DNA of 60,102 nucleotides from Halioglobus sp. GTDB lineage: Bacteria; Pseudomonadota; Gammaproteobacteria; Pseudomonadales; Halieaceae. Position 1 is the stretch's first letter. The number at the start of each line of letters is the position of its first letter. The position numbers and the translations under genes are program-made. Below are positions 6,652-57,122 of this stretch, piece after piece. The notes beneath the pieces are model-generated. The model was not told the DNA's origin and did not search any database. It saw only the letters and a program-made list of their open reading frames with translations. The stretch covers positions 1-60,102 of the forward strand of contig JAQWNG010000030.1 in assembly GCA_029246385.1 (NCBI GenBank), written 5' to 3'.

Positions 6652-8433
6652 GTGAATATGACCAACACCTTTAGCGAGCAATTGTTGGAGCACCGCCTGA
6701 GTCTGTCTGACTTGGTGCAAGACTTGAAGGCGGATGGACATCTGACAGATGCAGATTCTATCCGTATCGGTCTTTCAAGCAAAGCAAAAATACACCCGCT
6801 AATTTTTTTGGCCGATCAAAACCTGCGCGATGCAGCGGCGCCTGGCGCCTACTTGACGATGGACCGCTTGCTGGCGTGGCTCGGTAAGAAGGTGGGTCAG
6901 CCGGTTCATCGCATAGACCCGTTGAAAATAAACGTGACGGTGGTGTCAGAGGTGATGTCTAAGGCGTTTGCCGAGCGCCATCATATTCTCGCGCTGGAGG
7001 TCAATGTCGATGACGTTGTCATTGCCAGTGCCGAACCGTTTATGCGCTCGTGGGAGGCCAATCTGGAGCATGTGCTACGCAAGCCGATACGACGTGTGCT
7101 CGCAGACCCGCGGGAGATACTTCGCCACACGGCTGACTTTTACAGCATGGCGGTCTCCGTGCGCGGTGCGCGCACTGCTGATCGACCTGCTGGTCCGGGG
7201 GGGCTTGGTAACCTAGAACAGATGCTTGAGATTGGCTCCAAGAATGAGCCTGATGCCAACGATCAGCACATCGTAAACATTGTTGACTGGTTGCTACAAT
7301 ATGCCTTTGAGCAGCGCGCCAGTGATATTCATATTGAACCTCGGCGTGATGTGGGTAATGTACGTTTTCGTATTGATGGTGTGCTGCACTCAGTGTATGA
7401 GTTGCCAGCGCAGGTCTGTGCGGCAGTCAGTAGTCGCGTCAAAATTCTTGGCCGTATGGATGTGGCAGAAAAGCGCCGCCCTCAGGATGGTAGGATTAAG
7501 ACGCGAACCACTAATGGTGGCGAGGTTGAGTTACGTCTGTCCACATTGCCGACGGCGTTCGGCGAAAAACTGGTCATGCGTATTTTCGATCCGGATCTTA
7601 TGCAGCGCAGTTTTGAGCAGTTAGGTCTGGCAGACCTTGATCTACAACACTGGTATGACATGGTTTCATATGGTCACGGCATTGTACTGGTGACCGGACC
7701 TACAGGGTCCGGGAAGACTACGACGTTGTATTCGACGCTGCGTCAGTTAGCAAAACCGGAAGTCAATGTCTGTACCATCGAAGATCCGATCGAGATGGTG
7801 GAGGGCGCGTTCAATCAGATGCAGGTGAACCACGGCATCAATTTGGATTTCTCGACGGGGGTAAGAGCCCTCATGCGGCAGGATCCTGACATCATCATGG
7901 TGGGGGAGATACGCGATCTCGAAACCGCCAATATGGCAATACAGGCGGCTTTAACAGGGCATCTAGTGCTGTCCACTTTACACACCAACGATTCGCCCAG
8001 CGCTATCTCGAGGCTGTTAGAGTTGGGCGCGCCAGCCTACCTGATCCGCGCCACGGTGAGGGGCATTATGTCGCAGCGCCTAGTACGAATTTTATGTCCG
8101 CACTGCAAGGCGTTTGGCGCGCTGGATTTTGATGCTTGGCAGCAATTGACACAGCCTTGGGATGTGACGCCTCCGGCGCAGATCGCTCGTCCGGTAGGGT
8201 GCGATCAGTGTCGCGAAACGGGTTACCAAGGGCGCCAAGGAATCTATGAAGTCCTGGTGAATAGCCGGTCGGTGCAGGCGCATATAGCGCCGCAGCTCGA
8301 CACCCAGCACATTCGCGCGGCTGCGATGGCTGAGGGTATGCAAACCCTGCGCCTCAGTGGCGCCGCTCGTGTCGCGCGGGGTGAGACTACTATCGAGGAA
8401 GTGATGCGAGTCGCACCACAGATGGACACCTGA
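6652..8433 (+). CDS. GspE/PulE/PilB-type secretion ATPase
   Basis: This is a hexameric traffic ATPase of the type II secretion and type IV pilus class. The N-terminal 150 or so residues form the MshEN/T2SSE_N-like domain. The ATPase core has Walker A GPTGSGKTTTLY near residue 350, the Asp box CTIEDPIEMVEG, Walker B DPDIIMVGEIRD and the His box STLHTND. A four-cysteine zinc element follows (CPHC then CDQC about 40 residues later). GTG at 6652 and ATG at 6658 are both possible starts. No other secretion or pilus gene is adjacent, so its partner machine cannot be named from this window. Confidence 0.9.
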   Translation: MNMTNTFSEQLLEHRLSLSDLVQDLKADGHLTDADSIRIGLSSKAKIHPLIFLADQNLRDAAAPGAYLTMDRLLAWLGKKVGQPVHRIDPLKINVTVVSEVMSKAFAERHHILALEVNVDDVVIASAEPFMRSWEANLEHVLRKPIRRVLADPREILRHTADFYSMAVSVRGARTADRPAGPGGLGNLEQMLEIGSKNEPDANDQHIVNIVDWLLQYAFEQRASDIHIEPRRDVGNVRFRIDGVLHSVYELPAQVCAAVSSRVKILGRMDVAEKRRPQDGRIKTRTTNGGEVELRLSTLPTAFGEKLVMRIFDPDLMQRSFEQLGLADLDLQHWYDMVSYGHGIVLVTGPTGSGKTTTLYSTLRQLAKPEVNVCTIEDPIEMVEGAFNQMQVNHGINLDFSTGVRALMRQDPDIIMVGEIRDLETANMAIQAALTGHLVLSTLHTNDSPSAISRLLELGAPAYLIRATVRGIMSQRLVRILCPHCKAFGALDFDAWQQLTQPWDVTPPAQIARPVGCDQCRETGYQGRQGIYEVLVNSRSVQAHIAPQLDTQHIRAAAMAEGMQTLRLSGAARVARGETTIEEVMRVAPQMDT

Positions 8434-40998: not shown

Positions 40999-43900
40999 AT
41001 GAGTACGCAATGGAGCTTAGGCATTGATATCGGAGGCACCGGTGTTCGCTGTCTGTTGGTTAATTTGAGTTCAGGTGAGGCTGCCGATAGTGCCTGCGCT
41101 GGCTGGCAATGCCCTGCAGCGCCGGGCACCCTCGCCGGGTTTGATATTGATCTCGATGTGCTGTGGGAGCGTATTGGTGCAGGCTGCAAAAAAGTTTTAT
41201 CAAAGGCCGGCGTCAATGGCGACAGCGTGGCGTCTGTTGCCGTATCGGCCATTCGTTTTGGCACCGTTATCGTGGACAACAGCGGGAGCCCTTTATTTGC
41301 AGTACCAACGCGTGATGCGAGGGCTGCAAGTGAGTTTCTGGAGCTGGCGGAAACTGAAGGTGATGCGGTCCTGCAGGACACCGGTTGCTGGCCTCTGCCC
41401 ATTCATGCCTCTGCGCGCCTAATGTGGGTGTTACGCGAAAAGCCCGAAATCTTAAAAAAAGCTGCCGCCGTTTTGAGTATTGGCGATTGGGTAAACGCCA
41501 ATCTCACGGGGACTAATGTGACTGACTATAGTCAGGCCGCCTGCTCCGGCCTATTTGATATCAATAAGCGCGAGTGGAGTTGGGATCGTATTACACGACT
41601 GGGCTTGCCCAAAGCGATTTTTCCTGACGTGAAATACTCAGGGACACCGATAGGCAACATAACCGCCGCGGCAGCCGCACACCTTGGCCTCACTAACGAT
41701 GTCGTGGTGGGTCTTGGCGGTGGTGACAGTCAGTGCAGCCTGCTCGGTGCCGGTATTATTGCGCCCGGTGAGGTTGCTTTTATTTCCGGTACGACTGCCC
41801 CGGTGCAAGTCATTTGTAACAAGCCCCCCATTGATTCAACCGGCCGCTGTTTTAGTGGCCTGCACCTCGTGCCGGATCGATGGGTACTTGAAAGCTCAGG
41901 CGGTCCTATGGGTGAGACCTTAACGTTTATGTCGAAGCTATTGTTTCCTGAAGCGCCTAATCCCGAACTTCGCCTACTGGCCGAAGCGGCGACGGCAGAT
42001 GTGGGTTCCTGCGGTATGCTGTCGACGTTTGGCGCGGAGGTGATGAACGCTAAGTCACCTGTGCTATCAGCGGGGCAATTCACGCTCAGTCACGTTTTGA
42101 TGGATGACAACAGCAATCCGCGCAGCCAGATGTGCCGCTCACTTGTTGAGGGCTTCGGCTGCGCGATTCGCGCCAACGTTGAGCAACTTGAATCTGTCGT
42201 TGGTCCGATCACGCAAGAGATCCACCTCACCGGTGGTTTCTCGCGCAGCGGAGTGTTTGCACAAATAATGTCTGATATTGGTGCCCGCACGGTGGTCCAG
42301 TCAGGTACGCCTCTGACCGCTGCATTAGGTGCGGTTATGTGCGCCGCTGTCGCGGTTGGGAAATATCAGGGTTTCGAGGCGGCGACTAATGCGCTGGTTA
42401 AACCCGCAGATAACGTGGTCCCTGTTGCCGAACATGTTGAGGCGAATGCGGCGCTGTTCAGCAGCTGGATTACCTTGCGTGAAGCCGGCAAGCATTTTGT
42501 CAGTCCTGCGATTTTCGACCACACGCTGGCCTGGATGTTTAAAGGCCTCGGTGCTGCTGACATGACGCACCGCGAGGCAATCAGCGTCGAAAAACCGCTG
42601 CGAGCTTTGGTCAGCGCGGCTTTTGATCGGGAGTCGCTGGATAGGATGGAGTCATCAATGGAAGTGACTTATGCGAACTTTCGCAAAGTCAATCGTGTGC
42701 TCAGTGGTCAGGGTCTGGTCGAAGAGCTGCAAAAAGAGGCCATTAATATTCTGGTAACGGAAGTCGATGTTGTCGACGCCAAAAGCCTGTCGCAACTGCC
42801 TCACTTACGTGTCGTTGCGGCCTGCCGAGGTCGCGCTGTTAATGTTGATGTCGACGCCTGCAGTGCGTTTGGTATCCCTGTGCTATATGCCCCTGGTCGC
42901 AACGCTCTGGCGGTCGCGGACTTAACCGTGGCCTTTGTGCTTGCCTCTGCCCGCAAGCTCATGGGCGCATCGGTATTTTTAAAAGATGCGTCAGTCACTG
43001 CAGGCAACATGGGTAAGATGGGTCAAGCGTTCAAGCAGTTTCAAGGGCAAGAATTGTGGCAGAAAACGATCGGATTGATTGGCATTGGCGCTGTTGGCCG
43101 CGAGGTCGCCAGCCGCTTGAGCGGGTTTGGCGCTCGTATTCTCGCCGCTGATCCATACGCTTCCAGCGAGCAGGCTGCGCTTGCCGGCGTTGAGTTAGTT
43201 GATTTTGATACGCTGCTGCGTAGCAGTGATTTTATCAGCTTGCACGCAGTCGTCACGGCTGAAACAGTGGGCATGATAGGTGCGGCACAGTTCGCTGCAA
43301 TGAAAAAAGGCGCGGTGTTGATCAATACTGCGCGTGCCGCTCTTGTTGATGAGTCAGCGCTGATTGCCGCGCTTGACTCAGGGCATCTTGGCGGCGCCGC
43401 TCTCGATACATTTAGTCAAGAACCTCCCGGTTTTGACCACCCCCTGATTACGAACGAGAATGTCATCTCAACGCCACACTCTGCGGGCAACACATTTGAA
43501 GTTGCCCGCCACCAAGGCGAAGCGATAGTAGACGCCTTGGAAACAATGTTGCGCGGAGAAAAGCCCGATAACGTGCTCAACCCCGAGGTTCTCCAGAGCT
43601 TTGATTGGAATGCACCGCGAATAGCACTCGATGATGACACGCTGCAGGGCTTAATTAAGAACTCAGGTCCTGCTATCACCGACCTTGATATGAAGACAGG
43701 CGCAGTAATGTCAGCGGATGTTTCCCATATAAATGTCCGCGAGGTTACGGCTTCTGGCGATATCATAGAAAAAATGTCGCTTATCTTGGCGGGCTTTTGT
43801 GCGGCTATAAGCATGGATGAGCGGGTGAGAGCGTTGAGCATAGGTCTGCATGTGAGCCTTGGATTTCAGGTTAACGACCTCGGTGTAGAGTTTTATATTG

Positions 43901-44844
43901 CGTTGCATGACGGGTCGGTAAGCGCTGCGCTAGGCACAGTAGACGGTGGCGCTGACGTTCGACTCGGCATGCGCGCGCACTACATTGACGGCATGCTCTC
44001 GGGGCGTAAAGACGCAATGGAGGCCGTGATGGAGGGTTATATTTCGTTTGCCGGGGATGCGGGGAAAGGACTAACCATTCAGCGACTCGAAGCGGATATG
44101 AAGCGAATTTATAATGCCATTGTTGAGGACATCGGCAGCCCTGGCGACCTAGCCGGTATTCCTATGCCGGGCGGATCCGTTGTCAGCGCGCCCGCCATTG
44201 TGGGTGTTGTCGATGTTCGCCAGCAGCTTCTTGACACGGTGAATGAGCTTTACGCTGAAGGCGTGATTACCGCAACCGGCGGGAATGTCAGTGTGCGCAA
44301 CCCTGATACCGAGGGTGAAATCTGGATCACGCCCAGTCAGGTTTTCAAGGGCGACCTCACGCCGGAGTTAATGGTGCTTATTGATTTAGACGGAACACCG
44401 TTGATTCCGGGGCAGAAAGCGCCGTCTAGCGAGAAAAGCTTTCATACTCAAATATTGAAAAGAAAACGCGAGGCCAATGTTGTTATTCATGCGCATGCGC
44501 CTTTCGCCACGATACTTGCTAATACGGGCGTTCCGTTTTTGCCCATCTCGTCAGAGGCGGCTTTTTTTGGCGGTGACATTGCTCGTGTTCCTTACATGAC
44601 GCCGGGCTCTGACGAGTTGGCCGCGGCCGTATCCGACATCATGGTGGATGAATGGGCCGTATTCTTGGTTAACCATGGGGTGGTGTGCGCGGGCAGAAGT
44701 TTGCGTAAGGCATGTGACATGATTCAAATTATCGATCGCACAGCTGAGGTCATCCTTCGCTGCATGGCGGTCGGGAAAGAGCCGACGTTATTGCCTCAGT
44801 CGGCCATTGATAAATTTAAGGAAATCGGCGATATCCTTGCCTGA
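40999..44844 (+). CDS. four-domain fusion: FGGY kinase, D-2-hydroxyacid dehydrogenase, SCP2-like domain, class II aldolase
   Basis: One frame of 1281 residues joins four enzymes or domains. Residues 1-515: FGGY carbohydrate kinase with ATP-site GIDIGGTGVRCLLVNL and catalytic Asp243 in GLGGGDSQCSLLG. Residues about 530-870: D-isomer 2-hydroxyacid dehydrogenase with GIGAVG (residues 695-700) and the Arg779, Glu808, His827 triad. Residues about 880-1050: an SCP2-like sterol-carrier fold ending MEGYISFAGDAGKGLTIQRL. Residues about 1070-1281: class II aldolase of the fuculose-phosphate type with Glu1145 and zinc ligands His1164, His1166 and His1226. All active sites look intact. ATGGAG precedes the ATG. 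The likely role is phosphorylation, redox change and cleavage of a sugar or polyol acid, related in domain set to AI-2 and four/five-carbon sugar pathways; the substrate is unknown. Confidence 0.92.
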   Translation: MSTQWSLGIDIGGTGVRCLLVNLSSGEAADSACAGWQCPAAPGTLAGFDIDLDVLWERIGAGCKKVLSKAGVNGDSVASVAVSAIRFGTVIVDNSGSPLFAVPTRDARAASEFLELAETEGDAVLQDTGCWPLPIHASARLMWVLREKPEILKKAAAVLSIGDWVNANLTGTNVTDYSQAACSGLFDINKREWSWDRITRLGLPKAIFPDVKYSGTPIGNITAAAAAHLGLTNDVVVGLGGGDSQCSLLGAGIIAPGEVAFISGTTAPVQVICNKPPIDSTGRCFSGLHLVPDRWVLESSGGPMGETLTFMSKLLFPEAPNPELRLLAEAATADVGSCGMLSTFGAEVMNAKSPVLSAGQFTLSHVLMDDNSNPRSQMCRSLVEGFGCAIRANVEQLESVVGPITQEIHLTGGFSRSGVFAQIMSDIGARTVVQSGTPLTAALGAVMCAAVAVGKYQGFEAATNALVKPADNVVPVAEHVEANAALFSSWITLREAGKHFVSPAIFDHTLAWMFKGLGAADMTHREAISVEKPLRALVSAAFDRESLDRMESSMEVTYANFRKVNRVLSGQGLVEELQKEAINILVTEVDVVDAKSLSQLPHLRVVAACRGRAVNVDVDACSAFGIPVLYAPGRNALAVADLTVAFVLASARKLMGASVFLKDASVTAGNMGKMGQAFKQFQGQELWQKTIGLIGIGAVGREVASRLSGFGARILAADPYASSEQAALAGVELVDFDTLLRSSDFISLHAVVTAETVGMIGAAQFAAMKKGAVLINTARAALVDESALIAALDSGHLGGAALDTFSQEPPGFDHPLITNENVISTPHSAGNTFEVARHQGEAIVDALETMLRGEKPDNVLNPEVLQSFDWNAPRIALDDDTLQGLIKNSGPAITDLDMKTGAVMSADVSHINVREVTASGDIIEKMSLILAGFCAAISMDERVRALSIGLHVSLGFQVNDLGVEFYIALHDGSVSAALGTVDGGADVRLGMRAHYIDGMLSGRKDAMEAVMEGYISFAGDAGKGLTIQRLEADMKRIYNAIVEDIGSPGDLAGIPMPGGSVVSAPAIVGVVDVRQQLLDTVNELYAEGVITATGGNVSVRNPDTEGEIWITPSQVFKGDLTPELMVLIDLDGTPLIPGQKAPSSEKSFHTQILKRKREANVVIHAHAPFATILANTGVPFLPISSEAAFFGGDIARVPYMTPGSDELAAAVSDIMVDEWAVFLVNHGVVCAGRSLRKACDMIQIIDRTAEVILRCMAVGKEPTLLPQSAIDKFKEIGDILA

Positions 44845-44877: not shown

Positions 44878-44923
44878 TAGGGTTTTCCCTACATTAAAAC
44901 CAGCAGTCGTCGCGTAATATGAT
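44878..44923 (+). promoter_or_regulatory. box A palindrome and -10 of the PAS-HTH regulator gene
   Basis: The perfect inverted repeat TAGGG-TTTT-CCCTA occupies 44878-44891. A good -10 hexamer TATGAT lies at 44918-44923, 33.5 bp from the palindrome centre (TAATAT at 44915 would give 30.5). A small palindrome GATAC-TAA-GTATC (44921-44933) overlaps the expected start of transcription. There is no clear -35, as expected for an activator-dependent promoter. The site lies 60 bp before the PAS-HTH gene and suggests autoregulation. Confidence 0.55.
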
Positions 44924-44950
44924 ACTAAGTATCGTATTTGAGTTAAACCA

Positions 44951-45700
44951 GTGGCACATTCTTTTTATAACCGCATTTTTGCTCACATCGCGGGCCATGA
45001 AAACGTTGGGTGGTTCGTCAAGGACACGTCGGGACGGATTGTGAAAGCGGATGCCTCGGGACGATTTGCGAGAATTGCCGCCCTTGATGAAGCCCAATTG
45101 CTCGGAGCGACCACCGCCGACTTGCCGTGGTCAAGCGCAACTGAGCAAGTTAATGAGGCAGATGCTCGCGTGCTCGCTGGTGAAGTTAAAGAAGCGGTTG
45201 GGGTCTATTGGCATCCCCCTGACAAGCAATGGCGCCGCATCGTTTGTGCGAAATGGCTTGTGCGCGGCGGCTTGAATGGCGACAACGGCGACAACCTAAT
45301 TTATTGTATGATCATGGATATTACAGGCGTTATGTATAGACCATATGACACTGAGATATTGCGTGAGCATATAGAGGTCGATTGGGAAAGAGAGTGTGTC
45401 ATCGTTGGTAAGAATACACTCTCACGCGCTCACATCGTTTGCTTGAGCTATTATCTCGACCAAATTACTCAACCTCAAATTGCTGAACTTACGGCAGTGG
45501 CGGTGAAAACAGTTGAAAAACGCATAGCACATCTGAAGAACGCGCTTCTGCCCTTGGATAGGTCATGCGAGAATTTGTATATGCTTTGTCGAAAATACGG
45601 GATTCGATCGGCGCTCGAGGAAAAGCGAGATTGGTTTGATCAGCAGGCGGTGATTTGGCCTATCACCCACGGGCAGTGGGCCAGCAATCTCCGCAAGTAG
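44951..45700 (+). CDS. PAS-domain HTH (LuxR-like) transcriptional regulator
   Basis: This 249-residue protein has an N-terminal PAS-like sensor (GWFVKDTSGRIVKADASGRF through CMIMDITGVMY, residues about 10-125) and a C-terminal helix-turn-helix region near residues 155-205: LSRAHIVCLSYYLDQITQPQ then IAELTAVAVKTVEKRIAHLK, where the VKTVEKRI helix is the LuxR/GerE-type recognition helix. It starts at GTG 44951. No phosphoacceptor domain is present, so it probably senses a small ligand or redox state directly. It lies between box A and box B, just before the EPS operon, and is the best candidate for the protein that binds both. Confidence 0.85.
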   Translation: MAHSFYNRIFAHIAGHENVGWFVKDTSGRIVKADASGRFARIAALDEAQLLGATTADLPWSSATEQVNEADARVLAGEVKEAVGVYWHPPDKQWRRIVCAKWLVRGGLNGDNGDNLIYCMIMDITGVMYRPYDTEILREHIEVDWERECVIVGKNTLSRAHIVCLSYYLDQITQPQIAELTAVAVKTVEKRIAHLKNALLPLDRSCENLYMLCRKYGIRSALEEKRDWFDQQAVIWPITHGQWASNLRK

Positions 45701-45709
45701 ATAGCGGAA

Positions 45710-45754
45710 TAGGGGGAAACCCCTATATTACGCCCATTGGTTTTTTTTTATACT
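45710..45754 (+). promoter_or_regulatory. box B palindrome and -10 of the EPS operon
   Basis: The 16-bp palindrome TAGGGG-GAAA-CCCCTA (45710-45725) is the strongest of the four copies. TATACT at 45749-45754 serves as the -10, 31.5 bp from the centre. A run of nine T (45741-45749) lies between the two. The coding start of the tyrosine phosphatase gene is at 45866, giving a leader of about 105 bases. This is the inferred main promoter of the exopolysaccharide genes. Confidence 0.6.
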
Positions 45755-45865
45755 ATGTGAGCTCGCGCGTAATTACCGGGCACAGAAGTTACCTTACAGG
45801 ATGATAGGAATGATGCATTGGTGATTTTGGCCGCTGGCCGCCAACACTGACGCCCCTGCTAAATT

Positions 45866-46684
45866 ATGATCGACATGCACTGCCATATGTTGCCCGGAAT
45901 CGATGATGGGGCACGAGACCTAGACACGGCCCTCAGCATGGCGCGCCTGGCCGTTGACGATGGCATTACAATGACAGTCTGCACCCCTCATATTTATCCT
46001 GGGTTATTTGACAATACCGTAGAGGGTATTCAGGCGGCCGTTGTTGATCTCAGAGACGCACTAAAACGGGCGCAGATTCCGCTGGAGATAACGTCCGGTG
46101 CCGACATACAGATTACACCCGATCTAGTGCAGGGATTGCGCTCTGGGTCTTTGCCAACATTGCATCACAGTCGATACTTTTTGTTTGAGCCTCCGCACCA
46201 TATTGCCCCGCCCGGAATGCTGGATTTACTGCATAACGTCATTCTGGCGGGCTACATTCCTGTGATTACGCACCCAGAGCGCCTGTCCTATGTGGAGGAA
46301 TATTATGATCAATTTCTCGAAGCTGCGGCCATGGGGGCCTGGCTGCAGATAACGGGTGGCGCCTTATTGGGTCGCTTTGGCCACAGGGTTAAAGCCATTT
46401 CTGAGCGCTTTCTGGCAGCGGGGGTGGTTCACCTGCTGGCCTCAGATGGACACAATCTCAAAAATAGAACACCAGAGTTGTCAGAGGCACGCGCAGCCGC
46501 GGCGTTGTGGGTGGGTAAAGAAGAAGCGCAGCGACTGGTGCAAGAGCGTCCGCGTGCCATTTTGGACGACCTGGAACCCGGCGCGGTCTCGCCACCCCAT
46601 GTGCAGCCTCCCAGCAGCAACAAAAATATCGATAAGGGGAGCGCATCGGGTTTTCTGGGACGCCTGTTGGGCGGAGCTAGATGA
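45866..46684 (+). CDS. tyrosine-protein phosphatase, CpsB/CapC type (PHP domain)
   Basis: This is a manganese-dependent PHP-fold phosphatase that removes phosphate from the tyrosine cluster of the BY-kinase and so resets polysaccharide assembly. Metal-binding motifs are MIDMHCHMLPGIDDGARD at the start (His-x-His), TVCTPHIYPG, and VITHPERLSY and LLASDGHNLKNR further on. The 272 residues are slightly longer than YwqE/CpsB because of a polar tail. It is the first gene after box B and its cognate kinase is encoded at 49407. Confidence 0.92.
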   Translation: MIDMHCHMLPGIDDGARDLDTALSMARLAVDDGITMTVCTPHIYPGLFDNTVEGIQAAVVDLRDALKRAQIPLEITSGADIQITPDLVQGLRSGSLPTLHHSRYFLFEPPHHIAPPGMLDLLHNVILAGYIPVITHPERLSYVEEYYDQFLEAAAMGAWLQITGGALLGRFGHRVKAISERFLAAGVVHLLASDGHNLKNRTPELSEARAAAALWVGKEEAQRLVQERPRAILDDLEPGAVSPPHVQPPSSNKNIDKGSASGFLGRLLGGAR

Positions 46685-46721
46685 TGATGCATCTGTGTTG
46701 TTGCAGGTCAAGGAGCGGCCG

Positions 46722-47768
46722 ATGCTGCTGGTAGAAACGCTGGCGCTGATAAGCTTGTTTGCGGCTATTGCGCTGTGGTCGACGGCCTGGTTGGGGCGCC
46801 GTGTTGATCTGGTGGATCGCCCCAGCGGGCGTAAGAACCATACCGGTGACATTCCCCTGACGGGTGGCCTTGCGATATATGCCACCCTATTGTTCGGCAC
46901 GATGGCACTGTCTATTCCGCCTTATACGACCATCTGCTTAGCGCTCGCGGGCGGATTGGTTATGGTTAGCGTGTCCGACGACTACCATCATTTGAATGCC
47001 ATTGTGCGACTGGTGCTGCACTTTGGCTTTGGCGTTTTGTTGGCCGTGATCGGCGGCATCAGCATCTCTAATGTGGGTGATCTGCTTGCAACGGGCGATA
47101 TTCCTCTGCTGTTGTTGAGCGTTCCACTGACCGGACTGGCTGTGGCAGGCCTATGCAACGCATACAATATGATTGACGGCATTAATGGGCTATCTGCTGG
47201 ACTAGTGGCGCTGCCGCTTGCGGTGTTGTTTCTATTGGCGCGCAGTGCAGGCCATGACGGTGCCGATTTTGCGCTGCTGCTGTTGATCCCCTGCCTAATC
47301 TTTTTGGTGTTCAATGTGGGTCCGGATAACACTGTATTGCCAAGGATTTTTCTCGGTGATGCCGGTAGTGTGACGCTCGGTTTTTTAGTGACAGCATCAT
47401 TAGTCTATTTTTCACAGGGCGACAACGCCGTGATTCGACCGGTAACGGCTTTATGGCTAGTCACGTTGCCGTTGATGGACATGATTGCCACTATGCTGGG
47501 ACGTTGGCGCAGTGGAGCGCGTCTGACAAAGGCTGACCGTTCGCATCTGCACCACTTGTTGGTGGATCAAGGTATGGACGGCCGCCATGCTTTGGCGATT
47601 TTGGTGCTCTATGCCGGTGTCTGCGCGGGTGTGGGCCTGACACTCGAACGTGCTCCTGAAAGCCTCAGCCTGCTAGCGTTTTTTATCCTTTTCATTATCC
47701 ATTGCGGCGTTGTTAGAAGCTTTCGCAGGCGCCAAACTACGGTGCAACCTTTACCCGTTGTAAATTGA
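46722..47768 (+). CDS. MraY/WecA-family undecaprenyl-phosphate sugar-1-phosphate transferase
   Basis: This polytopic enzyme transfers a sugar-1-phosphate from a UDP-sugar (often GlcNAc) to undecaprenyl phosphate, starting repeat-unit synthesis. The family motifs are SDDYHHLN, NAYNMIDGINGLSAG, FLGDAGSVTLGF and the HLHHLL substrate loop. About ten membrane segments occur in 348 residues. ATG 46722 has AAGGAG six bases upstream; the frame extends upstream inside the phosphatase gene but without similarity. It is the only initiating transferase in the window. Confidence 0.93.
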   Translation: MLLVETLALISLFAAIALWSTAWLGRRVDLVDRPSGRKNHTGDIPLTGGLAIYATLLFGTMALSIPPYTTICLALAGGLVMVSVSDDYHHLNAIVRLVLHFGFGVLLAVIGGISISNVGDLLATGDIPLLLLSVPLTGLAVAGLCNAYNMIDGINGLSAGLVALPLAVLFLLARSAGHDGADFALLLLIPCLIFLVFNVGPDNTVLPRIFLGDAGSVTLGFLVTASLVYFSQGDNAVIRPVTALWLVTLPLMDMIATMLGRWRSGARLTKADRSHLHHLLVDQGMDGRHALAILVLYAGVCAGVGLTLERAPESLSLLAFFILFIIHCGVVRSFRRRQTTVQPLPVVN

Positions 47769-47895
47769 GCGGAGCGTGTTTTGCGCTATACTTTGGTCGG
47801 TGTTGCCGGCTTGTGTGCATCGATTGGGTGGAGTGTTGCCGCCGAGACATCGGTCGTTAGGGTGCGTTGCGGCGCGTATTATTAGGATACCCCTT

Positions 47896-48621
47896 ATGTT
47901 GCGATTAAGAAGGTATAGGAGGGCGGCCTGCCGGCACCTGCTGATGTTAGCAGTGGTGTGCAGCGCGCTGGTCGGCGCCGCACAAGCGTCTGCCGCGGAG
48001 CCGGGCGAATTACTCGCCATGCCGGCCACGCCGGCAGCGGGCAGTGGCGTGGTGACGTTATCCACCAATGATTATCGTATAGGCCCTTCCGATCAGTTGG
48101 AAATAGACGTGTTCCAGATCGAGGAACTGTCGGGGGTGGAGCGGGTGAATTCTCGTGGCTACATCAAAATGCCGCTGATCGGCTCCGTGAAGGTGGCCGG
48201 GCTTACGCAGGGAGAGGCAGAAAACCTGATCACCGCGCTCTACAGTGAAGACTACCTGGAAGACCCGCAGGTCAATATCGATATTATAGAGTATGCCAGT
48301 CAGCAGGTGACGGTGATGGGCGCGGTGAAGAAGCCTGGCGTGTTTGCGCTGAAGGGGCGGACCACGCTGCTGCAGGCTTTGGCGATGGCCAATGGCCTAG
48401 ACGGCCTACCCGACAAAGAAGGCATTATCATTTTCCGTGCGAACACAGAGGGCAAGGTCGTCGGCTATGTTGTGGATCTGGCGCAAATCGAGGACGGTCA
48501 GCAGGGTGATCCCGAGGTTATCGGCAGTGATAAAATTGTGGTGCCGGTGGCCGGTGTGGCGTCGGGCATTAAAGGTATCACCGACACGTTGCGCGGCTTC
48601 GTTGGGTTTCAGCGCTATTAA
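47896..48621 (+). CDS. polysaccharide export protein, GumB/Wza-like (first copy)
   Basis: This is an exported protein of the polysaccharide biosynthesis/export family with a Poly_export domain (TNDYRIGPSDQLEIDVFQIE) and an SLBB-like domain (QQVTVMGAVKKPGVFALKGR). The signal peptide (LLMLAVVCSALVGAAQASA) lacks a lipobox Cys. At 241 residues it is much shorter than E. coli Wza and lacks the C-terminal helix of the Wza barrel, so it resembles GumB-type exporters. ATG 47896 is chosen at the signal peptide; longer starts are not supported. The paralogue follows 60 bp downstream. Confidence 0.9.
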   Translation: MLRLRRYRRAACRHLLMLAVVCSALVGAAQASAAEPGELLAMPATPAAGSGVVTLSTNDYRIGPSDQLEIDVFQIEELSGVERVNSRGYIKMPLIGSVKVAGLTQGEAENLITALYSEDYLEDPQVNIDIIEYASQQVTVMGAVKKPGVFALKGRTTLLQALAMANGLDGLPDKEGIIIFRANTEGKVVGYVVDLAQIEDGQQGDPEVIGSDKIVVPVAGVASGIKGITDTLRGFVGFQRY

Positions 48622-48681
48622 TGGTTTTAGCGCGCTAACGATGCCTATCGCGCCATGCGATAATGCACGACGGAGTATCGG

Positions 48682-49389
48682 GTGAGCTCTACTATGAAAA
48701 TTGCTATGTGCTGCAGTGTTGTTTGGCTACTGCTGGGCGGAGTGTCGCTGGCGTGGCCGGCCGGCTCCGAAATGACCAGTGCGCCGATGCCCCTGACACC
48801 AGAGGATGGCAGCGGTGCCGTAGCCCTGTCGACCAGCGATTACATTCTTGGCCCGTCAGACCTACTGCAAATTGATGTCTTTCAGGTGGATGAGCTGTCT
48901 GGCACCGAACGTATAAACGCTGCGGGCTATATCAAGATGCCGCTGATCGGTCTGGTCAAGGTGGCAGGGCTGAGTCGGGAGCAGTCCGAAGACTTGATTA
49001 CCGAACTTTATGCCGAGGCGTATCTGCAGGACCCGCAGGTGAACATTGATATCATGGAGTATGTCAGCCATCAGATTACCGTGCTGGGGCATGTGACGAA
49101 CCCCGGCGTGTATCCGCTAAAGGGCAAAACCACACTGCTGCAAGCCCTCGCCATGGCCGGTGATGCCGGCGCGCTGGCCGATGAAGAAGAGGTTGTCGTG
49201 TTTCGATCCGATGAATCCGGCGTCGTGGTGGGTTATGTGGTGAATCTGGAAGACGTCTTAGCCGGCACTACCGTTGACCCGGAAATCATTGGCAACGACA
49301 AGGTCGTAGTGCCGGTATCTGGCAGCAAATCGTTCATCAAGGGCATCACGGATACCCTGCGCGGCTTTGTCGGCTTTGCTACCTTTTAA
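48682..49389 (+). CDS. polysaccharide export protein, GumB/Wza-like (second copy)
   Basis: This 235-residue exported protein is a clear paralogue of the preceding gene: DYILGPSDLLQIDVFQVDEL, YIKMPLIGLVKVAGL, LQDPQVNIDIMEYVSHQITV and KGKTTLLQALAMAGD align directly with it. A signal peptide (IAMCCSVVWLLLGGVSLAW) precedes the mature part. It has no convincing lipobox. Start GTG 48682 or ATG 48694. Both copies end in the same ITDTLRGFVGF motif, so they may form a mixed channel or serve two steps. Confidence 0.9.
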   Translation: MSSTMKIAMCCSVVWLLLGGVSLAWPAGSEMTSAPMPLTPEDGSGAVALSTSDYILGPSDLLQIDVFQVDELSGTERINAAGYIKMPLIGLVKVAGLSREQSEDLITELYAEAYLQDPQVNIDIMEYVSHQITVLGHVTNPGVYPLKGKTTLLQALAMAGDAGALADEEEVVVFRSDESGVVVGYVVNLEDVLAGTTVDPEIIGNDKVVVPVSGSKSFIKGITDTLRGFVGFATF

Positions 49390-49406
49390 TACGGGTTATA
49401 TTATTT

Positions 49407-51674
49407 ATGAGTTCAGAGTCTCCGCCTAACAATCCGGTCCCCGCTGATCAGCAACTGATGATCGCTGAGTTAAAAACTCAGTTGGCGCGGTATGAGCAGG
49501 CGATTGCGGCGCCGGCTGCCGCCCCAGTCGACGACGATTTCATTGACCTGCGCGAGGTGTGGAATCTGCTGTGGCGTCGGCGTTGGACGATCCTTATCAC
49601 AGCGGGCGTCGTGTTAGTCGCCACGATTATTGCGACAGCGATGATGACGCCGATTTTTCGTGCTACCACGGTGCTGCAGATTGAGCGGGACGCCGGCAAG
49701 GTGGTGGAGTATCAGGGCGTGACCAGTGAAGAGTCGACTGGCTCAAGGGATTTCTATCAAACCCAGTATGAACTATTGCAAAGTCGCACGCTGGCGCGGC
49801 GCGTGATTGATCAGCTGGGGCTGCACGAATCCGGCGCTATGACGCAAGATGACGAGGAGCCGAGTTTTATCGGCGGCCTTATTGGCAGCGTGAAGGGCTT
49901 GCTAAGTGGTCCTCCAGATGCTCCAAAGGACGCATTGCCGCGAGACCTAGAGACCGTGTTTTTAAACAACCTGTCGGTCGCGCCCATCAGTAATTCTCGT
50001 CTGGTGCGGCTGTATTACGAAAGCCCGGATCCGGCTGAGGCCGCTCTGGTGGTGAACGCCATTGCGGCGTCGTTTGTGGATATGAGTCTGGAGCGCCGCT
50101 TTGAGGCCTCGGCCTATGCCAAGGGTTTTCTCGAAGAGCGGCTTAAACAGGTGCGGGCAGATTTGGAAGACTCCGAGCGCGCGATGGTCGCCTACACGCA
50201 GGAGCGCGGCATTATTAATCGGGATGACAAGCTGGGCATTTTGACTGAGAAGCTGAAAGAGATGAACCGCGCTCAGGTGCGAGTGGAGTCCGAGCGCTTT
50301 GCGGCAGAATCGCAGTATCAGGAGATGCTCAGCGCCAGCATGGCCAGTCTGGCTGAGATGCTGGACAGTGAGGTGATCCAGAATTTGAAGCAGCAGCGCG
50401 CCGATTTAACCTCTGAGTATCAGGAGAATCTGAAAATCTATAAGCCAGGTTATCCGAAAATGCTGCAGCTGCAGGAAAAGATCGCACAGCTTGATCTTGA
50501 GCTGAGCAAGGAGATCGGGCACATTCGCGACGGCATCAAGGTCAAGTATCAGGCCAAGATGCGTGAAGAGGCGATGCTGTCAGAGCGCATTACGTCAACC
50601 CGTGGGGAAATCCTTGATCTGGAGGCCAACAGCGTTGACTTTAAAACACTGAGCCGCGGCGTCGATACTAACCGCGAGCTTTACGATGGCCTGTTGCAGC
50701 GCATGAAAGAGGTGGGCGTGGCTGCCGGTGCCAGTAACAATAATATTTCAGTCATCGATCGTGCCGAAGTCCCGCGCAACCGGTTTAAGCCAAATATGAC
50801 CCTTAATGCCGCGCTCGCACTGGTGCTGGGCCTGATGTTAGGCGCGGCGATCGCATTCCTGTTTGAGGTGATGGATGACAGCATCAAATCCGGTGCCGAC
50901 CTAGAGAAACTGCTGAATAAGCCGGTGCTGGGTATTATTCCGAACATCAGCGCTAAAGAGCTGACGGAGTATGATGTCGCCTTAATGGCGTATCAGGAGC
51001 CCACATCGGCGTTGGCCGAGGCTTATCGCTCCATGCGCACCGCGCTGACGTTTTCGACCGCTGAGGGCGCGCCCAAAGTGATGCAGTTTTCCAGCGTCGT
51101 GCCCAATGAGGGTAAAACCACCACCGCGGTGAATATCGCGATCAATTTTACCCAGACTGGCAGTAAGGTGTTGCTCGTCGATGGCGATCTGCGCAACCCC
51201 TCGCTGCACAAATTGTTTCACTGTCCTAACGAAAAAGGGCTGACCAACTACCTGACGGGGAATGCGGATCCGGCGGAGGTGACCCAGTCGTTAGGCATCG
51301 CCGGGCTGTTTGTCATGACGGCAGGCCCGGTACCGCCCAACCCTGCGGAATTACTGCAAGGCGGCAAGCTGGTAGAGCTGGTGGCGCTTGGCGCCCAACG
51401 GTTTGACTATGTGATTATTGACAGTCCGCCACTGCTGGGGCTGGCGGACGCCGTGATCATCGCCGATGCCGTGCAGGCGACGATTATGGTTGCGGCCGCC
51501 AATAGCACCCGAACGGGCGCGTTCGAGGCCGGCGTAAAGCGTCTGCACCATTCACGTGCCAGTATACTGGGCACGGTGTTGACCAAGTTTGATCTAAAAA
51601 AATCGGGTGATAGCTATGGCTATGGCTATGGCTATTCTTACGGCGGCGATAGCGATGATGGGCAACGCGCCTGA
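49407..51674 (+). CDS. polysaccharide co-polymerase fused to BY-type tyrosine autokinase (Wzc-like)
   Basis: This 755-residue inner-membrane protein controls chain length and assembly of the export complex. The Wzz domain starts with [20 protein letters not shown] and a first membrane helix. A long periplasmic coiled coil follows (residues about 200-440), then a second helix ([20 protein letters not shown]). The kinase has Walker [17 protein letters not shown]' [11 protein letters not shown] and [11 protein letters not shown]. The C-terminus is a tyrosine cluster [12 protein letters not shown] with six tyrosines for autophosphorylation. Cognate phosphatase at 45866. Confidence 0.94.
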
Positions 51675-51688
51675 GCACATCAGAGACA

Positions 51689-53109
<1,421 letters not shown>

Positions 53110-53113
<4 letters not shown>

Positions 53114-54396
53114 GTGGGCGCTTTAGTGACAGTCATGCAGGCGTGGCCGCCAAGCGAACAGCATTGGTCGTTATTGCGGCTGTGGTGACGTGGCAGATCC
53201 TCAGCGTCAATCTGTCCGATTTTTTTGTTGCACAGGCTCGTGATGGTGATGCTCAATCGTTGCAGACGGCGCTGTGGTGGGATCAACACCATCCGGTGGC
53301 ATTGGCGCGATTAGGCGCGGATGCGATACGGCAGACGCAACCCGCTGCCGCGCTGCCGCTGCTGCGCGCCGCCATCGCATCCAATCCAGCAGATGCACGG
53401 CCGCAAATGGACATGGCCGCCCTGTACGCCGCACAGGAAAAGGTAGCGCAAGGTGACCGTCTGGCAACGGTAGCGAATAAATTGATGCCGGTGCAATATG
53501 CCGCGCAGTTAGATTTGGCGCTGTATTGGTCCGCGCGCGAAGACGTGGAGAGGGCGGTGCAGCATCTGGCCACTGCGCTGGTCGGGGGCCGGGGCAGACT
53601 GCGGGAGAGCTACTTTCCGCAGCTACTGGACGCTGCGGCGCAAGAGCAAACCCGAGGTGCGCTATTGCCCATCACTGACAATCCGGCACTCTACCCGTGG
53701 TGGGAGGCTTTTTTCAGGTACGCCGCGGGCAATGCAGAGGATGTGGGCACTGTGACGGCCTTGGTTGACATGCGCGAGGCGTCGGAGCAGGTGCCGTTGA
53801 GTGCGCGTGAGCGCGACCTGTATATCGGCCGCTTGCGCAAGGATGAGTTAATTGCTGAGGCCTATTTGTACTGGGTCAATGGGCTAAATAAAGAGGACAT
53901 GCAATATCTGGGGTATTTGTTTGACGGTGGCTTTGAGCGCGAAATCGTTAACAGCACCGGCTTTGAATGGCGCGCGTCCCCGCCCAGAAACAGCGGCATA
54001 CGGATCACGTCGGGTGATACCTACGGCATCGAAGGCGACACCGCCCTGCGTGTGTCGTTTAGCGGCAAGCGCATTCCGTTTAGGCACCTCAGTCAAAACC
54101 TGTACCTCGGCCAAGGCACCTATGCACTCAGCGGCAGAGTGCGGCCCGACAACTTAAAGGCCCGCCGTGGGTTGCAGTGGCGGGTTGACTGCAATGCTGG
54201 GGCTAGCGGGGCACTGGGCAACAGCGACACGTTTGCCGGCACCGGTGACTGGCGCGATTTTGCCTTTGATATCACGGTGCCCGCAGACTGTGTCGGTCAG
54301 GTGTTGAGCCTAAGATCGGTCGGTGCGCGCGACGTAGACCACGAGATAGAAGGCACGCTGTGGGTGGACGCTTTAAGGATTGAACGCAAACGATGA
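53110..54396 (+). CDS. TPR-containing membrane-anchored EPS-locus protein
   Basis: This 428-residue protein begins with a single hydrophobic segment ([21 protein letters not shown]), so it is anchored with its body in the periplasm. Residues about 45-260 are TPR-like ([35 protein letters not shown]). Residues about 280-428 look like a carbohydrate-binding jelly roll ([34 protein letters not shown]). I do not know a named family for the whole. The GTGA overlap with the J-domain gene and the ATGA overlap with the polymerase gene place it within the operon; a role in holding the nascent glycan is possible but inferred. Confidence 0.8.
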
Positions 54397-55886
54397 ACGC
54401 TTCGCTATCAATTGCCAGTCGAATGACACCATTGTTGTTGGCCGCGTTTATTGTATTGGCGCCGCTGTTCCGTTCCGGCAAGGTTCCGCTGGCCACGTTG
54501 CTGCTTGAATTGCTGGCGGTAGCCGGATTTTTGGCCCTGTGGTGGAGCAGCGAGCGCCGCAGGGTGTTGGGGCGCCTGGAGGTTTTTCTGCTGGCCGCGT
54601 TGGCGGTGTTCCCGCTGCTGCAATTGGTACCGTTGCCTGGGTTAAGCCGGGTAGATCTGCCCGGGCAGGCTGCCTATTTTTTGGCGCAACAGGCAGCGGG
54701 AGTCGATCAGGGCGCGGTCACGTTGTCGGTCATTGCGCGAGAAACGCTGTCGGGCTGGCTGCTGTTATTGGTGCCGATAGCGGTGTATCTGCTGACAAGA
54801 GCTAGCTCGGTGCGCACTCTGCAGAAACTGGTGACACTGATGTTGGTAGTCGCGACGCTGCAGGCGGTACTCGGCCTGATGCAATTTGGCTCGTCGCCAT
54901 CGCCGATGTTTTACTTAGGCTATGAATACGGCACTGGCAATGCGGTGGGTACCTATACCAGCCGTAACAATTTTGCCGGGTTTTTGTATCTGTCGCTGAT
55001 GCTGAGTCTGGCGCTGTTCATGGTCACCCTTGGTCGGCAGACCCTGACGCAACAGGGTGTGAGTCTGCGTGAGCGCATGCAGTACTATGCAACGGCCGAC
55101 GGACATCGCGCGTTTATCTATGGCGTGATCGCCCTGCTGCTGCTGCTGGCGATTATTTTTACTCGCTCACGCACCGGCATTGTGCTCACGCTGGTGGGCG
55201 TGCTGCTGGTGAGCGCTGTCTTTTCCCGTCGCATTGGCGGGGGCAATACGTTTGGTCGCACCGGCGTTATCGTGTCGCTCGCGGTGGGCCTGGCGATTGC
55301 CATCGGCTTGGGCACTGTGCTGGAGCGCTTCACGGTAAGCGATCCGCTGTCGAATGGCCGCTGGATTATATTTGATGGCGTCTTTGACGGTATCGGGCAG
55401 TTTTTCCCCTTTGGGGCCGGCAGCGGCACATTTCAGCAGACCTTTGCCCGCTTTCAAGACCTCAGTCAGGCCGATTATCTGATTAATCGGGCCCACAACA
55501 GCTATCTGGAGTGGATCTATAACGGCGGGATAGTGGCCGTCGCACTAATACTGGGCTTTCTCGCGCTGTATTGTGCTCGGTGGTTTAGCTTATGGAAGCG
55601 TGGCGACTGGGGCGAGTTTCGCTATGTTCAGGTCGGCGCGGGACTGGGCCTGTTGCTGATGCTGTTACACGAGACGGTAGACTACAACCTGTTTGTGCCG
55701 GCCAATATGGTCTATTTTGCCTTTCTGGCGGGGCTGTACCTGCACCCTTATCGGGAGCCGGCTGCGCCCGGGCAGCGCGCCAAGCGCAGGGGAGAGTCCG
55801 CTGCAGCCCCGTCAGAGGAGGCGCTGCGCAAAGTTGCCTTGTTGCCTCAAGCCACCGAGCCCGAGCGCAACCCGTTTATGGATTAG
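54393..55886 (+). CDS. O-antigen polymerase/ligase family protein (Wzy-like)
   Basis: This 497-residue polytopic protein has a Wzy_C domain: a large periplasmic loop with RSRTGIVLTLVGVLL and the signature INRAHNSYLEWIYNGGIVA near residue 370, followed by more membrane helices. In this locus it is the expected polymerase that joins repeat units in the periplasm; a ligase role cannot be excluded because the two share the fold. It is the last gene before the boxed promoter of the small exported protein. The frame starts at ATG 54393 within the ATGA overlap. Confidence 0.88.
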   Translation: MNASLSIASRMTPLLLAAFIVLAPLFRSGKVPLATLLLELLAVAGFLALWWSSERRRVLGRLEVFLLAALAVFPLLQLVPLPGLSRVDLPGQAAYFLAQQAAGVDQGAVTLSVIARETLSGWLLLLVPIAVYLLTRASSVRTLQKLVTLMLVVATLQAVLGLMQFGSSPSPMFYLGYEYGTGNAVGTYTSRNNFAGFLYLSLMLSLALFMVTLGRQTLTQQGVSLRERMQYYATADGHRAFIYGVIALLLLLAIIFTRSRTGIVLTLVGVLLVSAVFSRRIGGGNTFGRTGVIVSLAVGLAIAIGLGTVLERFTVSDPLSNGRWIIFDGVFDGIGQFFPFGAGSGTFQQTFARFQDLSQADYLINRAHNSYLEWIYNGGIVAVALILGFLALYCARWFSLWKRGDWGEFRYVQVGAGLGLLLMLLHETVDYNLFVPANMVYFAFLAGLYLHPYREPAAPGQRAKRRGESAAAPSEEALRKVALLPQATEPERNPFMD

Positions 55887-55894
55887 GGCAAAAT

Positions 55895-55977
55895 TAGAGG
55901 ATTTTCCCTATATTTACGGTTTTGGGTAAAACTAGGGGGTTTTCCCTATATAAAAGTGGAAAAAAGTTATTTAGACT
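55895..55977 (+). promoter_or_regulatory. boxes C and D and -10 of the small exported protein gene
   Basis: Two palindrome copies occur 38 bp apart: box C TAGAGGATTTTCCCTA (55895-55910, one mismatch between the arms) and box D TAGGGGGTTTTCCCTA (55933-55948). TAGACT at 55972-55977 fits as -10, 31.5 bp from the centre of box D, the same distance as at box B. The pair suggests cooperative binding and strong control of the gene starting at 56021. Confidence 0.55.
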
Positions 55978-56020: not shown

Positions 56021-56503
56021 ATGTTTGTTAAATCATTGGCCCTCACCGCCGCGACGACGATTCTTTTGGGCAGCAGCTTAACGACTGTCGCTGACAATGC
56101 TGGAACGCAACTCACCAGCTTGCAGTTGCCAGTAATGATTAATCAGACAGGTACCTATGTTGAGGCGCAAACCAATATGACGGTCTACCCCGGTGATCGC
56201 CTGATGGCAATGGGTGGCGGTTCGGCAACAGTGCAGTATGACAACGGTTGCGTGCAGTCTGTCAGCGACAACGAGATTGCCGAGATAGGTACTCCTGAGA
56301 GCTGCAATACGCTGGCTGAGGCAGGCACTAACTTTGCCGTTGGCGGTGCTGCTGCCGCTGGTGGTAGCGCTGCGGCCGCGCCAATAACCGGCGGCCTCGT
56401 ATTTGCCGCCACTATGGCCGGCGGCGTTGTCCTAGTCGACGTTGTTAGCGACGAAGTACTGTCTTCTGGCAACAACACCGACAATCCGCCTATCTCTCGG
56501 TAG
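56021..56503 (+). CDS. small exported protein with FecR-like strand motif and Gly/Ala-rich hydrophobic segment
   Basis: This 160-residue protein has a signal peptide (MFVKSLALTAATTILLGSSL, cleavage near TTVADN). The mature part contains MTVYPGDRLMAMGGGSATVQ and YDNGCVQSVSDNEIAEIG, a pattern resembling FecR-type beta strands, with two Cys that could form a disulfide. A Gly/Ala-rich hydrophobic stretch follows (residues about 105-140), then a polar tail. No function is known to me. It has its own promoter with two boxes and its own terminator, so it is a single-gene unit inside the EPS locus. ATG 56021 has AAGGAA upstream; an in-frame start at 55922 lies before the box D promoter and is excluded. 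Confidence 0.82.
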   Translation: MFVKSLALTAATTILLGSSLTTVADNAGTQLTSLQLPVMINQTGTYVEAQTNMTVYPGDRLMAMGGGSATVQYDNGCVQSVSDNEIAEIGTPESCNTLAEAGTNFAVGGAAAAGGSAAAAPITGGLVFAATMAGGVVLVDVVSDEVLSSGNNTDNPPISR

Positions 56504-56618: not shown

Positions 56619-57122
56619 ATGAGCACGCAATGGTTTGCCGTGCAGTCTAAGCCACGGCAGGAAAGCACCGCTAAGGAACAGCTTCAGCGCCAGGGCTATA
56701 CGGCCTATTTGCCGATGATGACGGTGCGCAAGCGCAGGCGGGCGGCCTGGACCACATCCGTCGAGCCGCTGTTTCCGCGCTACCTGTTTGTAAACGCCAA
56801 TATTAGTGAGCAAAGTCTAGCGCCGGTGCGTTCAACGGTAGGCGTGTCGACGTTGGTTCGTTTCGGCAATGTCCTTAGGCCGGTGCCCAACGCCGTTGTG
56901 CATTATCTGCAACAGGCAGAGACGGCGCAGGGTGCTGTGCCGGGAGAGGAAAGCTGGCCTTTTCGGGCTGGCGACAAGGTGGCGGTGTTAGAGGGCCCGT
57001 TTGCGGGATTAACGGCCGTGTTTGAGGGCGCTGAGCCGGAGGCGCGCGCCATGATTCTCATTGAGCTACTGGGACGGCAAAACACTGTCGAGGTGCCTAT
57101 CAATGCGCTGAATGCGCTGTAG
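56619..57122 (+). CDS. rfaH: transcription/translation regulatory protein RfaH (NusG paralogue)
   Basis: RfaH is a specialised NusG paralogue recruited at ops sites to prevent early termination in long polysaccharide operons. The NGN domain has WFAVQSKPRQESTAKEQLQR, GYTAYLPMMTVRKRRRAAW and VEPLFPRYLFVNANI; the C-terminal KOW part has FRAGDKVAVLEGPFAGLTAV. At 167 residues it matches RfaH rather than the 180-residue essential NusG. The ops element found 126 bp downstream, ahead of the next gene, supports this over other NusG paralogues. Confidence 0.9.
   Translation: MSTQWFAVQSKPRQESTAKEQLQRQGYTAYLPMMTVRKRRRAAWTTSVEPLFPRYLFVNANISEQSLAPVRSTVGVSTLVRFGNVLRPVPNAVVHYLQQAETAQGAVPGEESWPFRAGDKVAVLEGPFAGLTAVFEGAEPEARAMILIELLGRQNTVEVPINALNAL

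What the first reader, a model, noticed from the sequence alone, without database searches (positions are those of the whole stretch)
44878..55977. A shared TAGGG(G)-N4-(C)CCCTA palindrome at three promoters, at nearly fixed distance from the -10
Four copies are seen: box A 44878-44891 before the PAS-HTH gene, box B 45710-45725 before the EPS operon, boxes C and D 55895-55910 and 55933-55948 before the small exported protein. The distance from palindrome centre to the putative -10 start is 33.5 (A), 31.5 (B) and 31.5 (D) bp, and no good -35 is visible. This geometry fits a class II-like activator at about -43 and a small dedicated EPS regulon. The adjacent PAS-HTH protein is the obvious candidate to bind. 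I do not recognise this palindrome as a named operator.
Basis: partly seen in the sequence, partly recalled or inferred. Interest (0 to 1): 0.8.

Follow-up and report, generated by a model that had tools for sequence, protein, structure and literature searches.

The report
VqmA-like operator controlling slime genes
A marine bacterium carries a repeated DNA switch site, nearly always the same distance from the promoter, in front of its slime-building genes and in front of genes for sensor proteins that resemble a Vibrio quorum-sensing receptor, so a receptor of that kind probably turns on slime production directly here.

Summary
TAGGG-N4..6-CCCTA occurs 3 times in the window (0.08 expected); box C has one mismatch. 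The constant is the 3' half-site: exactly 23 bp separate CCCTA from a TANNNT hexamer at A, B and D. The genome has 14 exact sites; 8 lie upstream of genes and 7 of these 8 keep the 23-bp spacing: two PAS-HTH regulators, the EPS operon, a small exported protein, two LRR/BspA-type exported proteins and a DUF1254 protein. In 140 family genomes the exact composite occurs 20 times: 17 in the 7 genomes with a regulator relative, 3 in the other 133. The regulator is VqmA-like: profile search and Foldseek rank VqmA structures first, and published VqmA sites resemble the box. Best explanation: VqmA-like one-component activators bind at about -43, activate their own genes and switch on EPS and surface proteins. 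Two of three DPO-contact residues and a Tdh over cut-off are missing, so DPO is probably not the ligand. Binding, start sites, ligand and the division of work between paralogs are untested. New variant of a known kind.

The parts
44878..44891 (+). Box A, TAGGGTTTTCCCTA, before the PAS-HTH gene
   Evidence: exact match; same box with 23-bp spacing at 7 of 8 PAS-type regulator genes, this one included
44915..44920 (+). Putative -10 of the regulator gene, TAATAT, 23 bp after box A (alternative TATGAT at 44918-44923)
44951..45700 (+). VqmA-like regulator, PAS domain plus LuxR-type HTH, 249 aa (GTG start as listed; start not tested)
   Evidence: PAS_4; VqmA first in profile search and Foldseek
45710..45725 (+). 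Box B, TAGGGGGAAACCCCTA, before the EPS operon
45749..45754 (+). Putative -10 of the EPS operon, TATACT, 23 bp after box B
45866..46684 (+). First gene of the EPS operon, CpsB/CapC-type
   Evidence: PF19567
46617..55886 (+). Rest of the presumed EPS operon: WecA-like transferase (start uncertain), two Poly_export/SLBB proteins, Wzz/tyrosine-kinase protein, DnaJ-domain protein, a protein with only a weak sub-cut-off PEP_TPR_lipo match, Wzy_C protein
   Evidence: co-transcription inferred from spacing and strand only
55895..55910 (+). Box C, imperfect, TAGAGGATTTTCCCTA, 38 bp upstream of D centre to centre
55933..55948 (+). Box D, TAGGGGGTTTTCCCTA, before the small exported protein
   Evidence: a box-like site at 23 bp is kept before the relatives in G124 and G115, each with one mismatch
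55972..55977 (+). Putative -10, TAGACT, 23 bp after box D
56021..56503 (+). Small exported protein, 160 aa
   Evidence: no Pfam or NCBIfam family; relatives in 10 of 140 family genomes, own included; export inferred from the hydrophobic N-terminus

Best explanation
The palindrome is the operator of a small family of VqmA-like one-component activators (N-terminal PAS domain, C-terminal LuxR-type HTH). A dimer sits on TAGGG-N4..6-CCCTA centred at about -43, with CCCTA ending where the -35 element would begin, and recruits sigma-70 polymerase to promoters that have a -10 but no good -35 (class II-like activation). The regulator activates its own gene (box A), the downstream EPS operon (box B) and a small exported protein (boxes C and D). 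Elsewhere in the genome the same element stands before a second paralog, two LRR/BspA-type exported proteins and a DUF1254 protein, so this is a matrix/surface regulon with positive feedback. The PAS domain presumably senses a small molecule, probably not DPO. Shown by sequence: the boxes, the fixed 23-bp spacing, the co-occurrence with regulator genes, the VqmA-like fold, the similar published operator. Inferred: binding, activation rather than repression, start sites, ligand, and which of the two paralogs acts where.
For: 3 boxes in the window, 0.08 expected. 7 of 8 upstream-lying boxes of the genome have TANNNT exactly 23 bp after CCCTA. Over 13 oriented sites, 12 have it at offset 23 and 0-3 at each other offset from 10 to 39; 1 of 57 orientations of boxes from 29 genomes without a regulator hit has it. 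Composite box-23-TANNNT in 140 genomes: 17 of 20 in the 7 genomes with a regulator relative (reversed control 2), 3 in the other 133 (control 8). 14 of 17 VqmA-like regulator genes have an exact box within 500 bp upstream or 150 bp downstream. Regulator profile: phage VqmA 7dwm 7e-9, V. cholerae VqmA about 1.4e-4; Foldseek ranks 1-8 are VqmA at 5.6e-9 to 1.3e-8, next 9.8e-6. Published VqmA sites AGGGGGGATTTCCCCCCT and TAGGGGGAAAAATACCCT. The HTH stretch aligned to VqmA KTVE reads KTVE in P0002.
Against: No binding or start-site data. G115 keeps a one-mismatch box at 23 bp before the small-protein gene but has no regulator hit. The EPS-promoter box in G124 has 7 of 10 half-site letters. The boxed C17 promoter lacks the hexamer. 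Three of 17 regulator genes have no exact box, own paralog C21 among them. The vqmA and qtip directions of phage VP882 have no TANNNT at offsets 18-28 after the site, and the vqmR promoter could not be compared. Two paralogs share one box. P0002 alone matches VqmA weakly (E 0.013) and Foldseek TM-scores are modest (0.37-0.56). G120 and G116 count as regulator genomes only through weak HTH-region hits.
Confidence: 0.7

Rival explanations
1. The boxes are bound by a different, unlinked regulator (another LuxR/NarL-type protein), and the PAS-HTH genes are merely among its targets.
For: G115 has a box-like site at 23 bp without a regulator hit. TAGGG-N4-CCCTA-like sites are recalled for other LuxR-type HTH proteins such as NreC; my searches did not confirm this (no paper opened).
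Against: The composite concentrates in genomes with the regulator (17 of 20); boxes lie beside 14 of 17 VqmA-like genes, prophage ones included; published VqmA sites resemble the box.
Confidence: 0.15
2. The VqmA-like protein binds the boxes but represses, or acts as activator or repressor depending on ligand; the EPS operon is switched off rather than on.
For: The direction of regulation cannot be read from sequence; in V. cholerae the VqmA pathway ends in repression of biofilm genes through VqmR (abstract of PMC8284805).
Against: Box position just upstream of the -35 region with no good -35 is typical of activators (established knowledge); VqmA itself activates its promoters (PMC8284805).
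Confidence: 0.12
3. The palindromes are chance or repeat-derived and do not form a regulon.
For: 6 of the 14 genome sites lie in or overlap reading frames; the C5/C13 promoters are copies of one another; two G053 boxes lie in copies of one repeated sequence.
Against: Shuffles, reversed-pattern controls, fixed spacing against 1 of 57 at control boxes, box-like sites before the small-protein gene in another genus.
Confidence: 0.02

Closest known systems
VqmA of Vibrio cholerae and its site in the vqmR promoter
   Same: PAS plus LuxR-type HTH one-component regulator, colinear in profile alignment and first in Foldseek; palindromic site of G and C blocks around a short central stretch, AGGGGGGATTTCCCCCCT. 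A near copy, AGGGGGACATTTCCCCCT, lies between the two regulator genes of G124 (L092:7810-7827).
   Different: About 17% identity in Foldseek alignments; F67 and F99 are V and C in P0002; no Tdh over cut-off; boxes stand directly before protein-coding genes (EPS, exported proteins, the regulator itself), whereas VqmA acts on the vqmR sRNA gene.
VqmA of phage VP882 with its target qtip
   Same: 7dwm is the best solved relative; its site TAGGGGGAAAAATACCCT begins like boxes B and D; it activates its own gene as well as qtip.
   Different: Box-to-hexamer spacing of 23 bp is not seen in VP882; phage target is an antirepressor gene (section 7 of PMC12802170).
LuxR/NarL-type class II activators in general
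   Same: Palindromic site centred near -42.5 next to the -35 region (recalled, no call).
   Different: Sensor domains differ; no Pfam GerE match for 5 members even at E 5.

Membership tests
VqmA (DPO quorum-sensing receptor) | PAS domain followed by LuxR-type HTH, colinear along the protein | tested here: met
   PAS_4; alignment of profile positions 21-204 to VqmA 22-203; Foldseek ranks 1-8
VqmA (DPO quorum-sensing receptor) | DPO-contact residues F67, F99 and K101 | tested here: not met
   P0002 has V, C, K; over the 14 aligned relatives F occurs at neither of the first two positions, and K at the third in 10 of 14; positions from the alignment; residues named in PMC10426928
VqmA (DPO quorum-sensing receptor) | DPO synthase Tdh in the genome | tested here: not met
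   TIGR00692: best 123.7 bits, cut-off 458.35, 0 over cut-off
VqmA (DPO quorum-sensing receptor) | Operator with GG-N6-CC core as in PvqmR | tested here: inconclusive
   G/C-block palindromes of the same look but N4-6 between TAGGG and CCCTA; whether VqmA binds them is unknown
VqmA (DPO quorum-sensing receptor) | Target gene vqmR, an sRNA | tested here: inconclusive
   No Rfam match over gathering score in the window, L083 and L092; whether the library holds a VqmR family was not checked
VqmA (DPO quorum-sensing receptor) | Ligand-dependent activation of the target promoter | not testable with these tools
   needs reporter assays
Class II-type activator site | Site centred near -42, abutting the -35 position, with a -10 and no good -35 | tested here: met
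   Centres at about -42.5 (A) and -43.5 (B, D) if transcription starts 7 bases after the hexamer; start sites not mapped
Class II-type activator site | Activation by contact with RNA polymerase | not testable with these tools
   needs biochemistry

The most novel reading that the evidence does not exclude
A quorum-sensing-like receptor family outside Vibrio: VqmA-like PAS-HTH proteins of Halieaceae that sense a small molecule other than DPO and, with positive feedback, directly switch on exopolysaccharide and matrix-protein promoters through a common box-23-TANNNT element; prophage-borne members in another family of the same order use the same element before a small downstream gene, as VP882 does with qtip.
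Probability: 0.35. Interest if true: 0.8.

Novelty: new variant of a known kind. Interest (0 to 1): 0.62.

Why it matters
In the papers I saw (listed in the full report), VqmA is a Vibrio receptor and a receptor of VP882-like phages. A relative with a recognisable operator, a simple promoter rule (CCCTA-N23-TANNNT) and a matrix regulon in a marine family would give a directly testable circuit, a way to find its regulon in any genome, and a route to an unknown ligand. The prophage members suggest that phage use of such regulators may reach beyond the VP882 group.

Tried and rejected
P0002 as tblastn query found nothing in phages or plasmids, and a back-translated search of viral contigs found no relative. 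The V. cholerae PvqmR core AGGGGGGATTTCCCCCCT occurs in 14 viral contigs; their flanks were printed but not identified. It occurs in 0 of 369 sampled genomes of the class, so I could not compare the vqmR promoter spacing. Pfam and NCBIfam give no HTH family above cut-off for P0002; its weak HTH-region matches include sigma-70 region 4, so a sigma-factor-like protein was considered and set aside because of the PAS domain and the VqmA match. NreC of Staphylococcus was considered from recall; one paper search gave nothing, another listed 8 of 26 papers, none opened. A second look with VIA-align was not available. The response-regulator hits of the order-wide search (G374, G393, G411) and G311 were left aside as other families. 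From the 17-gene count I left out the HTH-region hits of G116 (3) and G120 (1) and a 41-residue fragment in G117:C90, because their reading frames were not delimited; for G117:C88b the start used there was my choice. From the 13-site count I left out G053 and G116 and the sites inside genes. G053 sites seen apart: of its 13 exact boxes, 4 have TANNNT at 23 bp.
Full report
Observation. The window holds three exact TAGGG-N4..6-CCCTA palindromes, at 44878, 45710 and 55933, against 0.08 expected from shuffles, and an imperfect fourth at 55895. They stand before the PAS-HTH gene, the EPS operon and a small exported protein. Families in the operon: CpsB/CapC, WecA-like transferase, two Poly_export/SLBB proteins, Wzz/tyrosine kinase, DnaJ-domain protein, a protein without a Pfam family, Wzy_C.

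Geometry. Measured from the 3' half-site, a TANNNT hexamer begins exactly 23 bp after CCCTA at all three promoters: TAATAT 44915, TATACT 45749, TAGACT 55972. If transcription starts 7 bases after the hexamer, the box centre is at -42.5 (A) or -43.5 (B, D), and the -35 position (17-bp spacer) directly follows the box.

Genome-wide. The own genome has 14 exact boxes. Eight lie upstream of genes: window A, B and D; the second PAS-HTH paralog on C23; an LRR_5/BspA-type protein on C5; an LRR_5/BspA-type protein and a DUF1254/DUF1214 protein on C13; and a DUF2939 protein on C17. Seven of these eight have TANNNT at 23 bp; C17 does not. The other six lie in or overlap reading frames, about the number given by the reversed pattern (5 with N4-8; 3 with N4-6). 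Among 140 genomes of the family, the own genome (14) and G053 (13) have the most boxes; no other exceeds 5.

Spacing control. Of 13 oriented sites (8 own, 5 at regulator genes of relatives), 12 have TANNNT at offset 23; each other offset from 10 to 39 has 0 to 3. They include copied promoters, so I estimate seven or eight independent cases. Of 57 orientations of boxes from 29 genomes without a regulator hit, 1 has the hexamer at 23. The exact composite occurs 20 times in 140 genomes: G000 7, G053 4, G117 3, and one each in G124, G130, G120, G037, G057 and G058. The seven genomes with a regulator relative hold 17 (reversed control 2); the other 133 hold 3 (control 8). Two of the seven, G116 and G120, have only HTH-region hits; leaving them out, five genomes hold 16.

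Regulator genes. Relatives of the PAS-HTH protein occur in 7 of 140 family genomes, and 7 of 390 sampled genomes of the order have a match, several of them ordinary response regulators. Of 17 VqmA-like regulator genes examined, 14 have an exact box within 500 bp upstream or 150 bp downstream; some G053 boxes are shared between neighbouring genes. Of the 8 PAS-type genes, 7 have an exact upstream box with TANNNT at 23 bp. The exception, the second G124 gene, has AGGGGGACATTTCCCCCT about 270 bp upstream, just after its neighbour. The other misses are G130:C118 and the own third paralog on C21.

Targets in relatives. Relatives of the small exported protein occur in 10 of 140 genomes, own included. 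G124 and G115 each keep a one-mismatch box with a TANNNT 23 bp on. G053, another genus, has two boxes 22 bp apart, the nearer one imperfect and 22 or 23 bp before TACACT depending on how the half-site is read, and an HTH regulator as next gene. The remaining six (G021, G025, G027, G030, G032, G132) have neither a regulator hit nor a box with at most one mismatch in the stretch scanned. G115 has no regulator hit, which speaks against a strict link. In G124 the EPS operon follows the regulator; its promoter box has 7 of 10 half-site letters, with TATGCT at 23 bp. In G117 the regulator gene has the same upstream neighbour but no EPS operon after it in the contig held. A one-mismatch box with TATTAT at 23 bp stands before a large exported fn3 protein in G117.

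Identity of the regulator. Pfam sees PAS_4 only. A profile of 14 relatives finds phage VqmA 7dwm at 7e-9 and V. cholerae VqmA at about 1.4e-4, aligned across PAS and HTH. P0002 alone gives 7dwm at 0.013. The AlphaFold model (pLDDT 81.5, pTM 0.70) has VqmA chains as Foldseek ranks 1-8 at 5.6e-9 to 1.3e-8; rank 9 is 9.8e-6; TM-scores are modest (0.37-0.56), as would be expected if the two domains are oriented differently. Published VqmA sites are AGGGGGGATTTCCCCCCT (PvqmR) and TAGGGGGAAAAATACCCT (Pqtip); compare box D TAGGGGGTTTTCCCTA and box B TAGGGGGAAACCCCTA. DPO-contact residues F67, F99 and K101 are V, C and K in P0002, and Tdh is not over cut-off. So it may work like VqmA at the DNA, but it is not shown to be, and probably is not, a DPO receptor. 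In VP882 itself no TANNNT lies 18-28 bp after the site in either direction, so the 23-bp rule is not a general VqmA rule on this evidence.

Mechanism. Best supported: a dimeric one-component activator on the box, touching polymerase from next to the -35 position, with positive autoregulation and direct control of EPS and surface-protein promoters. Shown: sequence features, co-occurrence, fold. Inferred: binding, direction of regulation, ligand. The own genome has two PAS-type paralogs with the same box, so they may compete, pair or serve different conditions.

Known or new. Paper searches (openly licensed PubMed Central only; listings partly capped) showed VqmA work in Vibrio and in VP882-like phages, and no listed title or abstract on Halieaceae or on direct EPS control by a VqmA-like protein. 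Seen: PMC8284805 (abstract, section 7, passages), PMC10426928 (passages), PMC7387800 (passages), PMC12802170 (abstract, sections 7 and 9); the others only as search listings. I file it as a new variant of a known kind.

Noticed in passing
L128:3671-4636 and L129:4320-5028 (genomes G237 and G264, another family of the order): VqmA-like 204-aa regulators beside phage terminase and Mu-type portal genes. 14 bp after the regulator gene stands TAGGGTTGAACCCTA or TAGGGTTTTACCCTA, read away from it, with TATAGT exactly 23 bp on, then a small reading frame that looks related in the two prophages. The layout recalls vqmA-qtip of VP882.
   Followed up: partly
L130:3384-4043 (own genome, contig C21): Third VqmA-like paralog (E 1.5e-27) without a box nearby (best 3 mismatches upstream, 2 downstream).
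   Followed up: partly
L092:7810-7827 (G124): AGGGGGACATTTCCCCCT between two regulator genes, nearly the published PvqmR core.
   Followed up: partly
window 56619-57122: RfaH-type antiterminator gene (TIGR01955, 157.2 bits over cut-off 144.5) right after the small exported protein; it may serve the surface-polysaccharide genes.
   Followed up: no
window 51689-53113: Protein with an N-terminal DnaJ domain and a long Glu-Pro repeat inside the EPS operon.
   Followed up: no
window 47776-49389: Two neighbouring, similar Poly_export/SLBB genes, apparently a tandem duplication.
   Followed up: no
window 40999-44844: One 1281-aa frame joins an FGGY kinase, a D-2-hydroxyacid dehydrogenase, an SCP2-like stretch and a class II aldolase.
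   Followed up: no
L085:6407-6420 and 7170-7183 (G053): Two TAGGG-N4-CCCTA boxes lie in copies of one repeated sequence and lack TANNNT at 23 bp; probably unrelated background.
   Followed up: no
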